Origin: Balamuthia mandrillaris
Lineage: Eukaryota; Discosea; Longamoebia; Balamuthiidae
NCBI GenBank assembly: GCA_031835245.1
Contig: JAVKOQ010000019.1
Coordinates: 79,501 to 143,500 of the forward strand
DNA: 64,000 nt
Direction: 5' to 3'
The notes below the pieces were generated by a model. It did no database searches and was not told the DNA's origin. It was given only the letters and a program-made list of their open reading frames with translations. Below are positions 46,509 to 50,039 of this stretch, piece after piece; the stretch's first letter is position 1; each line of letters opens with the position of its first letter. A program made the translations under genes and the position numbers.

Positions 46509-49500
46509 ATGTTGGAGGTTTTGCTGTTCGGGGTCCTGCTGGTTGTAGGCGGCCTGTTGGTTGCCCGACTAACTGGCATCCTGCCCTCCTCTCAGCCTTC
46601 CAAAGTGTACGGACTCTGCTCTTCTTTTTTCTCACATTCTCTTGTCTCTCTCTCTCTCTTCTCTCCCTTTAAATTTAGTGAGAAGTAGACTAACTGTTCT
46701 CAAAACTGTAGGAAGGGAATGGCCGTCCGTCGCAAGAACGGAGTTTTGGAGAAAGCACATTTGCCGTCTTCCGCAGGCCGCCAGCTACGGCGTAGAGGCG
46801 GAGCTCCCACAGCCACCTCTCAACTCTATGAGCTGTCAGCCGCTCCACAACAACAATACCACCAGCAATACGACCAAAGAGGCCCTTCTTCGGTCACGAA
46901 ACCAGCTGCTGGCGCAGCTTCTCCCTATTATGCTTCACTCTCTTCTTCTGTTCCGGCAATGAAGTCCTTCCCTAGCGAACCTCCTTCCCCCTCTGTCTTG
47001 TCGCCGTACTTTTCTTCTTCGTGGGAGAAAGTGGGCTCTGTGGGTTCTTCTGGTGGGGCTGCCCCGTTCTCTTCGCCCCTCTATCATCCCATCAAGAAGA
47101 AGAAGGATGAGCTAGAGAAACTTACATCTCCCATTTTTCATCAACACGACGAACCTTATCGGCCTGAACGTTATGAACCTCTTGCTTTCTCTCAACGCAG
47201 CGCCGAGTTTTATTACGATGAGGACGAAGCGGAAGAAGACGAAAATGAAGAAAGAGAGACAACGGATGTCATCAATAACAAAAACACGCCTCGCAAATCG
47301 CTCATCGAAACATTGATGGAAGATGAATCGGCCAACAACAGAGAGGATTACTTCAAGTCTTCTCGATCAAACTCGCCAAAGCCAACGATCACAATAAAAG
47401 ACGCAGAAAACAACCTCCCAGCAAAGTCAAGAATGGATTCCAACCGCAAACGTCGTATCATCGAGGAGAACGGCTTGCCTCTGGAGTCAAAAAAAAAGGC
47501 TCGTGGCACTCCATTCCAACAGCAACCAAGAGGACAAGGCGCCAAACGAAGAATATCTAGCAGCAAATCGGGCTCTCCTACCAGCGAGAGCTCCACCAAA
47601 CGAACTAAACCTCTGACCGTTGGCGAAGCAGGTGAACCAGAAACAGAAAGAGATAGAGAGGAGGAAGAAGAGCTGCAACACCGAACACCAGGAGTAAAAA
47701 GAAAGGCTGTAGCCGCTAGTCTGGGTTCTCCGCAACGGCCGACACCCGCTACTACTCCCAGATCGCTTCCCAGTGATATAGCCACCACTACAAAGAGAAG
47801 AAGAGAAAGGGGATATGAAGAACGGGACCGAGAACGAGAACAAGAACGTGAAAAACGACCTTCCAAATACCTTCGTGATGCAGATGATGATGTTCAAAGA
47901 GACCCTGAAGTGGCCGCCACCGTCACCAAACGTAATCGCATGAATGTTTTGAAGCAAGTGCTGCTCAAGTCCTCTCAACAAAGAAGCATGTTCGACGCTG
48001 CTTCTGGTCCTTCTACTCCTATTGCCACTTTGAAATCTTCATCATCCTCGTCGTCAGCAGAAAGCGCCACATCTACCCCAACCACCTCCACAGCAACCAC
48101 AGTCACAGCACCCCAGCAAGTTAAAGAGGAACAACGAACTCCCGCCACTCCAGAAGAGCATGAGCAAAGTAAAGAGGATTATAAGCCGTCATCGAGCGAG
48201 ACACCTGTTGCCCTCTCCCAAAGAGATTCTTTTGCATCTTCTCCAGCCATCACCGGAACACCCAAAAACAGACTTAGATTTTCCTCTAAAAGGCCAACAG
48301 CTACCACACCGTCATCACTATCGCAAGGCACTCCCGCCAGCTCGACTAGCACGAGCGACAACCCTGCAACGAAACAGAAGCAGACGAAGCCCGAGAAAGA
48401 AAGTCCTGCGACCAAGGAAGAAGACGAAGAAGCAGAAGACAAAAGAGTTTTGTCACTCCTGCAATCCGCCTCTGATCTTGCCAAGAAAAAGGAACAACAA
48501 GCCAAGGAAGAGGAACAGGCCAAACAACGAGAGACGCCCAAGCCTTTGATCACATTGAAGAAGAAAGAAGAGCCTCCTTCCGCCGAGCAGCAACCTCCTG
48601 TTATTGCAACGATGCCTATCCCTGCTGGGGCTGCCATTTCTACCTCCTCTCAACAACAACCACAACCACTTGCTGTTGCTGCTCCCGCAGCTCCTGCTAC
48701 CAGCGGATTCGTCTTTCCCGGTCCAACGACATCTGCTCCACAACCTCAACAACAGCAGCAGCAAGCCGCTGTCCCGACCGCCTCTTCATTTACCTTTGGA
48801 GGAGCTCCAACCCCTTCTTCTTCATCCGCTCTCTCCCGCTCTACGCCTGCTACCTCTGCTGGAGCAACTGCCGGATTCGCTTTGCCATCATCGTCAACCG
48901 GGTCCCTGTCGGCGTCGACCCCTTCTCTGTCCACCACTCCCTCTTCCTCGACTGTTTTCGCTCCGTCTTCCTTTACCACTACTGCCAACAAACCGGCTTC
49001 TTCTACCCCATTCTTTGGTGCATCCTCCACACCTGCTTTCGGCGCGCCTTCCTCCTCGTCCGCCTTTGGGGCATCTTCCACACCTGCTACCTCCTCCACG
49101 CCAGCCTTTGGCGCCTCCTCTACACCTGCATTTGGCGCTTCCTCCTCCTCCACACCATCTTCCACTCCTACCTTTGGTACACCATCATCGAGTTCTGCTT
49201 CAGCGTTTGGAGCATCCTCCACACCAGCCTTCGGTGCCTCTACACAAGCCTTTGGTGCCCCTACACCAGCCTTTGGTGCCTCCTCTGCTCCTTCCTTCGG
49301 AGCTCCTTCCTCCACTCCAGCCTTCGGTGCCTCTTCCTCAACACCAGCTTTCGGCACCCCCTCTACGCCAGCCTTTGGTTCTACCTCTTCCTCAACACCA
49401 GCGTTTGGTGCTTCCTCTACGCCAGCTTTCGGCGCATCCTCCACACCTGCTTTTGGTGCTCCGTCTTCCACCAAACCAGCTTTCGGCGCATCCTCAACAC

Positions 49501-50039
49501 CAGCCTTTGGTGCTTCCTCTACATCTGCCTTTGGCACATCCTCTACACCTGCTTTCGGCGCATCCTCTACACCTGCCTTTGGTGCTTCCTCTACACCTGC
49601 CTTTGGCGCATCTTCTACACCAGCGTTTGGTGCTTCCTCTATTCCTGCTTTCGGCAGCTCCGCTACCCCTGCTTTCGGTGCTTCCTCTTCCTCTACCCCT
49701 GCTTTCGGCGCATCCTCCACACCAGCCTTTGGTGCCTCCTCTGCTCCTTCCTTTGGAGCTCCTTCCTCAACACCAGCCTTTGGTTCTTCTGCATCCTTTG
49801 GAGCTCCTTCCTCAACGTCGGCCTTTGGTGGCTCTTCCTTTGGCGCTCCCTCCTCCGCCGCTCCCGCTTTCGGTGCTCCTCCGTCCTCAAAACCCACCTC
49901 CTCAGGTTCATCGGTGGCAGCTGCATTGGCTGAATCCACTGGTGGCGGGGCTGGCTTTTCCGCCGGATCGAGCGGCGGTAGCAGTGGTGGCAGCCGTGGT
50001 CGAAGAGGAGGTGCTCGGGGCCGAAGAGGAAGAAGATAA
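46509..50039 (+). CDS. Membrane-anchored FG-repeat nucleoporin-like protein, POM121-like (1141 residues)
   Basis: Exons 46509-46606 and 46712-50039 join in phase (3426 nt). Exon 1 encodes a single N-terminal membrane span (EVLLFGVLLVVGGLLVARLTGIL), followed at once by a basic cluster (AVRRKNG). Residues about 50-680 are disordered, Ser/Pro/Lys/Glu-rich, with several NLS-like clusters (KPTAT... KRRRERG, SNRKRRIIEE, KKKARG). From about 690 to 1110 the sequence is FG repeats of the form STPAFGASSTPAFGA, with about 45 FG dipeptides. The C-terminus is Gly/Arg-rich (GRRGGARGRRGRR). FG repeats bind transport receptors in the nuclear pore. The layout of a short N-terminal span, basic linker and C-terminal FG region is that of vertebrate POM121. 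Whether it is a true homologue or convergent cannot be decided from sequence alone. Confidence 0.85.

What the first reader, a model, noticed from the sequence alone, without database searches (positions are those of the whole stretch)
46509..50039. POM121-like membrane-anchored FG nucleoporin in a protist-like genome
Seen: a short exon encoding one N-terminal membrane span, spliced to a long exon with basic clusters and about 45 FG dipeptides, ending in an RGG-like tail. Known: POM121, with this layout, is described from vertebrates and close relatives, and most other eukaryotes lack a transmembrane FG protein of this kind. Inference: either POM121-type anchoring is older than thought, or it arose again by fusing a signal-anchor exon to an FG nucleoporin.
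Basis: partly seen in the sequence, partly recalled or inferred. Interest (0 to 1): 0.75.

Follow-up and report, generated by a model that had tools for sequence, protein, structure and literature searches.

The report
Membrane-anchored FG nucleoporin candidate
This protist gene appears to encode a nuclear-pore protein that is pinned in the membrane at one end and reaches into the pore with sticky FG repeats, a layout already known from vertebrate POM121 and a Tetrahymena protein, here in what is probably another lineage.

Summary
The observation largely holds. A 98-nt exon (46509-46606) encoding one strong membrane span joins, across a 105-nt GT-AG intron, a 3,328-nt exon (46712-50039), giving 1,141 aa: span, basic linker, FG domain, Arg/Gly tail. 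FG dipeptides number 36 (35 outside the span), not about 45. A second haplotype (contig C734) supports the model as far as it reaches, which is short of the FG domain: exon 1 has one synonymous change and no indel; exon 2 indels are 3 and 6 nt; the intron differs by 5 nt; dN/dS is 0.29. The exon-1 ATG is the first after about 570 ATG-free bases. Charge favours a lumenal N-terminus and an FG arm in the pore, as in POM121.

The protein would work like POM121, but no POM121-family sequence match was found, nor any homologue. The claim that protists lack such proteins is out of date: Tetrahymena TtPom121 has this layout and sits at pores, and a 2021 review lists POM121 as a candidate for LECA origin. 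The host may be amoebozoan (Acanthamoeba-like on one gene). RNA and localisation are missing.

The parts
46509..46606 (+). Exon 1: start ATG, one predicted membrane span (about residues 4-25), 32 codons plus 2 nt
   Evidence: KD 2.6; net charge -1 before the span, N-terminal amine not counted, +4 in the 15 residues after it; 1 synonymous difference, 0 indels against the second haplotype; nearest upstream ATG at 45936.
46607..46711 (+). Intron, GT...AG, 105 nt (110 nt in the second haplotype); read through, the frame stops 59 codons from the ATG
   Evidence: donor GTACGG resembles GTACTT of a UROD intron in the window, read by eye.
46712..50039 (+). Exon 2: basic low-complexity linker, FG domain, Arg/Gly tail, stop codon
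   Evidence: dN/dS 0.29 over exon 1 plus the part of exon 2 covered by both haplotypes.
46712..48713 (+). Linker (residues 33-700): residues 26-700 are 29% charged; basic clusters at residues 39, 59, 161, 278, 293, 311, 329, 362, 394, 412, 439, 624, 649; bipartite NLS-like KRRIIEENGLPLESKKK at 279
   Evidence: regular-expression scan, not a trained NLS predictor; no Pfam match in 46719-48680 at E up to 10.
48984..49898 (+). FG domain (residues 791-1095): 34 FG, mostly PAFG, commonest spacing 8, about 1% charged residues; one further FG at residue 728
   Evidence: degenerate tandem repeats at DNA level; a 148-residue piece matched only this gene in the genome at E 1e-4 (3 matches, 15 candidates scored).
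49899..50036 (+). C-terminal Gly/Ser/Arg tail ending GGSRGRRGGARGRRGRR

Best explanation
The gene encodes a single-pass pore-membrane FG nucleoporin that works like POM121. The N-terminal span acts as an uncleaved reverse signal anchor (about three residues in the lumen, the remaining about 1,115 residues on the pore or nucleoplasm side); the basic linker carries NLSs that take the protein through existing pores to the inner nuclear membrane; there it seeds or stabilises pore assembly by gripping scaffold nucleoporins, and its PAFG repeats add to the permeability barrier from the pore wall. Shown here: gene structure supported by two haplotypes up to 48294, hydrophobic span, charge bias, FG enrichment, low dN/dS, and Ndc1-, Nup98- and Nucleoporin_N-type matches in the same genome. 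Inferred: splicing and translation, topology, nuclear localisation, pore binding, assembly role.
For: Gene model. Span. FG domain. Noncoding divergence between haplotypes is 82 events in 724 nt against 1 in the 98 nt of exon 1 (binomial P about 1e-4, sites treated as independent); indels are 3 and 6 nt in exon 2 and 1 and 4 nt in the intron. The genome holds matches to Nup98 autopeptidase, Ndc1 and Nucleoporin_N. POM121 layout, topology, NLS and partners from passages of papers.
Against: The intron itself differs by only 3 events in 105 nt, so local divergence is low and exon 1's single difference is weaker evidence than the binomial suggests. No RNA, no localisation. No homologue found. No POM121 Pfam match at this locus; the one Pfam match is an Spt5 C-terminal repeat profile on the FG region, E 3.2e-11 and above its cut-off, which I read as a low-complexity match but have not disproved. 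An internal ATG at residue 36 could give a soluble form.
Confidence: 0.7

Rival explanations
1. Soluble FG nucleoporin of the basket or connector type (Nup153/Nup1/Nup98-like in role): the real start is M36 in exon 2 and exon 1 is 5' UTR or a minor isoform, as in human soluble sPom121.
For: M36 lies just inside exon 2. Soluble Pom121 forms made by alternative transcription starts exist in mammals (PMC4888837, abstract and passages). Intron divergence is nearly as low as that of exon 1.
Against: Exon 1 holds the first ATG after about 570 ATG-free bases; its only haplotype difference is synonymous; a leader this hydrophobic occurs at 6 of 816 comparable starts. No nucleoporin domain matched.
Confidence: 0.14
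2. Ser/Thr/Pro-rich protein with a cleaved signal peptide or a plain membrane anchor, FG repeats being incidental low complexity.
For: The window holds another Ser/Thr-rich frame without a Pfam domain (50456-52540, minus strand).
Against: No positive residue before the hydrophobic stretch and +4 in the 15 residues after it, the reverse of a usual signal peptide (recalled); many NLS-like clusters; FG far above shuffles with about 1% charged residues in the domain.
Confidence: 0.06
3. Inner-nuclear-membrane FG protein that is not a stable pore component (chromatin or transport tether).
For: The same anatomy (span, NLSs, long disordered linker) would suit inner-membrane targeting; recalled knowledge, no call.
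Against: A 305-residue FG domain with 34 FG is hard to explain away from pores; TtPom121 with this layout is at pores.
Confidence: 0.08

Closest known systems
TtPom121, Tetrahymena thermophila (TTHERM_00312730; PMC5450191, passages)
   Same: N-terminal single span, C-terminal FG repeats, similar size (129 kDa there, 1,141 aa here), NLS activity inferred near the span there, basic clusters here.
Vertebrate POM121 (Pfam PF15229)
   Same: Single span with the largest part facing the pore; N-terminal NLSs; FG repeats.
   Different: No PF15229 match at this locus; almost no lumenal N-terminal segment here; PAFG flavour and Arg/Gly tail (not compared with POM121 by any search).
TtPom82, Tetrahymena (PMC5450191, passages)
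   Same: Membrane span plus FG repeats.
   Different: Span near the C-terminus, FG at the N-terminus, coiled coil.
TbNup65, Trypanosoma (PMC8421043, passages)
   Same: A nucleoporin with a conventional span found in one lineage of its orthologue group.
   Different: Nup53/59 orthologue, not presented there as an FG arm protein.
Nup153 / yeast Nup1 and Nup60
   Same: Basket nucleoporins that bind the membrane; basic and disordered with FG repeats (recalled).
   Different: They bind membranes as peripheral proteins; here the N-terminal segment is uniformly hydrophobic (moment 0.15) and no Nup153 domain matched.

Membership tests
POM121 family (PF15229) | Sequence match to the Pfam POM121 profile | tested here: not met
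   No match at E up to 10 for the spliced protein or for exon 1 read-through and linker separately (HMMER filters drop most matches above about 0.1). Genome-wide: one match below the cut-off on another contig, C226, E 0.02, 3 candidates scored.
POM121 family (PF15229) | Single N-terminal membrane span with the long C-terminal part on the pore side | tested here: inconclusive
   Hydropathy and charge bias fit; the splice lacks RNA proof and topology was not measured.
POM121 family (PF15229) | NLSs between span and FG region | tested here: inconclusive
   Basic clusters and a bipartite-like stretch; importin binding not testable here.
POM121 family (PF15229) | C-terminal FG repeats | tested here: met
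   34 FG in residues 791-1095, shuffle maximum 11.
POM121 family (PF15229) | Binding to Nup155 and the Y-complex | not testable with these tools
   Possible partners exist in the genome as Nucleoporin_N matches.
Single-pass TM-FG nucleoporins as an architecture class (POM121, TtPom121) | N-terminal span plus C-terminal FG arm in one protein | tested here: met
   At the level of sequence and of two haplotypes up to 48294; RNA proof of the splice is missing.
Single-pass TM-FG nucleoporins as an architecture class (POM121, TtPom121) | Residence in the nuclear pore | not testable with these tools
   Needs tagging and imaging.
Nup98 / Nup153 / other FG nucleoporins with a Pfam domain | Family domain | tested here: not met
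   Spliced protein: only an Spt5 CTD repeat profile (PF12815, E 3.2e-11, above cut-off) on the FG region; none in the linker. The genome's 4 PF04096 matches lie on C30, C201 and C210, not on C18.

The most novel reading that the evidence does not exclude
N-terminally anchored FG nucleoporins arose, or survived, in at least three distant groups: vertebrates, ciliates and this possibly amoebozoan protist. If their N-terminal regions share no ancestry, adding a signal-anchor exon to an FG protein is a recurrent solution for fixing barrier repeats to the pore membrane; if they do share it, POM121-type anchoring dates to the eukaryotic ancestor.
Probability: 0.35. Interest if true: 0.55.

Novelty: new member of a known kind. 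Interest (0 to 1): 0.38.

Why it matters
Pore membrane proteins are described as possibly the least conserved part of the nuclear pore, and whether POM121-type anchoring is ancestral or repeatedly invented is unsettled: a 2010 survey restricts it to vertebrates, a 2021 review lists it as a LECA candidate. A gene with this layout probably outside animals and ciliates, with a second haplotype supporting its exon structure, gives a concrete case to test. It does not overturn anything: the layout and the idea that it may be ancient are in print.

Tried and rejected
Homologue searches led nowhere: residues 1-700 (the 7,966 candidates sharing most words scored, none at E 0.001) and residues 1-180 (3,433 candidates, none at E 10). 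These nulls are weak: the database holds eukaryotic sources (eukprot, mmetsp and uniref names appear), but the search needs shared 5-residue words, and neither answer listed even this window's own protein, although the window's phosphate carrier was listed (P0001). PDB comparison of residues 1-672 gave 2 matches, best E 0.15, neither meaningful.

Lineage: no light-harvesting match. The adenosylhomocysteinase exon is closest in PDB to 6uk3 (154 of 199 identical), then 5v96 (138 of 198); 49 distinct sequences matched. PMC7765604 assigns these to Acanthamoeba castellanii and Naegleria fowleri (passages). The phosphate-carrier search (120 of 3,344 hits listed) names one organism in its output, Vannella robusta (73%; Discosea), but other entries score higher, among them P0031 (75% identity) and P0002 (MMETSP1385, 67% identity, second in the list; organism not shown; I recall a foraminiferan, unverified). 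So Amoebozoa is a working assumption, not proven. Paper searches for the assembly (0 papers), for MMETSP1385 (0 papers) and for a Balamuthia genome (8 papers, listing only) did not identify it.

Print check for a Pom121-like protein in Amoebozoa: searches (5 and 12 papers listed). In PMC2951903 the table seen marks Pom121 only under opisthokonts. The passages seen of PMC13242641 and PMC4071446 mention none, but do not address Amoebozoa directly. The remaining papers of those two lists were seen only as listings.

Structure prediction was not run: a disordered protein without homologues would give an uninformative model.

Full report
What is there. The window is part of contig C18 (79501-143500) of a 64.8 Mb, 775-contig assembly. 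On the plus strand, an ATG at 46509 opens a 98-nt exon; a GT at 46607 and an AG at 46710-46711 bound a 105-nt intron; the second exon runs in frame to the stop at 50037-50039, giving 1,141 residues. Unspliced, the first frame stops 59 codons from the ATG. Both neighbours lie on the minus strand: a DEAD-box helicase whose first frame begins at 45889 and a Ser/Thr-rich frame at 50456-52540 without a Pfam domain. The next plus-strand gene I recognise upstream is a uroporphyrinogen decarboxylase (PF01208 in its first exon; last long frame ends at 43223). So no nearby plus-strand gene other than this one offers itself as the owner of exon 1.

Is the splice real. There are no RNA data, but the assembly holds a second haplotype on contig C734, which ends at base 14793, equivalent to window 48294, before the FG domain. 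Aligned with window 44993-48294: intergenic 45890-46410, 57 substitutions and 8 indels in 521 nt; the last 98 nt before the ATG, 12 and 2; exon 1, 1 substitution and no indel; intron, 1 substitution and indels of 1 and 4 nt; exon 2, 18 substitutions and indels of 3 and 6 nt in 1,583 nt. The exon 1 change is synonymous (codon 10). As counted there are 10 synonymous and 9 nonsynonymous changes (two of the latter in one codon), dN/dS 0.29. Against the pooled noncoding rate (82 events in 724 nt) one event or fewer in 98 nt has probability about 1e-4 if sites are independent. A fair reading must add that the intron alone has only 3 events in 105 nt, so part of exon 1's conservation may be regional. 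Independent support: the nearest ATG upstream of 46509 is at 45936, and the second haplotype has none in the 360 nt before its ATG (5.6 are expected in 359 nt by base composition). Two UROD introns in the window, at the limits of an exon piece that aligns end to end with PDB URODs, have donors GTTCTC and GTACTT (read by eye); GTACGG here fits that loose pattern.

Anatomy. Residues 1-19 average 2.6 on the Kyte-Doolittle scale; the best window starting beyond residue 11 scores 1.05. Among ATG-initiated stretches open for 32 codons, 4 of 423 on the plus and 2 of 393 on the minus strand reach 2.6 near the start; this gene is one of the four, and the two minus-strand ones are nested. The segment is uniformly hydrophobic (moment 0.15), not amphipathic. 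Net charge is -1 before it and +4 in the next 15 residues, which by the positive-inside rule (recalled) puts the C-terminal bulk on the cytosol/pore side. Residues 26-700 are 29% charged with 13 basic clusters by regular expression, two more lying in the tail (15 in all). The FG domain (791-1095) has 34 FG with about 1% charged residues; 17 of 33 spacings counted are 8; PAFG makes up 23 of all 36. The tail is rich in Arg and Gly. Pfam gives one match, the Spt5 C-terminal repeat profile PF12815 on residues 984-1057, E 3.2e-11 and above its cut-off; I read it as a low-complexity match to the repeats, without a separate test. Nothing matches in exon 1 or the linker.

Setting in the genome. The same assembly has Nup98 autopeptidase-domain matches on C30, C201 and C210 (4 matches), Ndc1 on C4 and C376 (4 matches) and Nucleoporin_N on C75, C92 and C100 (5 matches): pore parts with which such an anchor could work. 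A piece of this FG domain matched nothing outside this gene at E 1e-4. Residues 1-672 gave 12 matches: 2 on this gene, 2 on the second haplotype, and 8 elsewhere at E 0.0017 or weaker, which I did not examine.

How it most likely works. By analogy with POM121, described as a single-pass protein with a large pore-facing disordered region that binds NUP155 and the Y-complex in vitro and comes early in interphase pore assembly (PMC13242641, passages; PMC8700311, passages), the protein would be inserted as an N-out/C-in anchor, brought to the inner membrane by its NLSs, and hold FG repeats at the pore wall. Only the gene, the span, the charge bias and the FG enrichment are shown.

What is known. 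Neumann et al. 2010 found Pom121 only in vertebrates (PMC2951903, passages). Iwamoto et al. 2017 then described Tetrahymena TtPom121 with N-terminal TM and C-terminal FG, GFP at macronuclear pores, nuclear side by immuno-EM; with GFP at its N-terminus the protein was nucleoplasmic instead (PMC5450191, passages). A 2021 review names POM121, with Ndc1 and Gp210, as candidates for LECA origin and calls it more widely found (PMC8421043, passages). By sequence it cannot be called a POM121 family member.

Lineage. On one gene (adenosylhomocysteinase) the genome is nearest to Acanthamoeba castellanii among solved structures, and a phosphate-carrier search lists the amoebozoan Vannella robusta, though entries of undetermined origin score higher. 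PDB sampling is thin, so Amoebozoa is a working assumption. The paper searches showed me no Pom121-like protein reported from Amoebozoa; that is limited to the open library and to the listings and passages seen.

Verdict. Sound observation with a miscount, reasonable functional guess, overstated novelty. The open points are RNA proof of exon 1, orthologues, and localisation.

Noticed in passing
44993-48294 against G000:C734:11500-14793: The assembly carries a second copy that differs by about 11% substitutions in intergenic DNA (57 of 521) but about 1-3% in the coding frames (18 of 1,583; 18 of 666): a very heterozygous diploid, a hybrid, or an old duplication. Nup98-type matches lie on three contigs and Ndc1 on two; whether these are haplotype pairs was not tested.
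   Followed up: partly
20881-23487: Stretch of short pyrimidine-rich repeats giving Ser/Leu/Phe-rich open frames over 200 aa; by eye these frames are probably not genes.
   Followed up: no
36517-37524 (-): F-box-like protein with ankyrin repeats of the type LEVLKWAREQGCPW.
   Followed up: partly
10485-12617 (-): Right-handed beta-helix repeat protein (PF13229 and PF05048 in frame 11018-12007), apparently split by introns.
   Followed up: partly
561-5476 (+): Large PI3/PI4-kinase-type gene that resembles TOR by eye (recalled); only the kinase domain in frame 4328-5476 was confirmed by Pfam.
   Followed up: partly
40667-41542 (-): Subtilase with a peptidase S8 pro-domain, resembling a proprotein convertase by eye.
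   Followed up: partly
G000:C734:14793: The second haplotype's contig ends inside this gene's linker, about 690 bases before the FG domain; the repeats may have helped to break the assembly.
   Followed up: no
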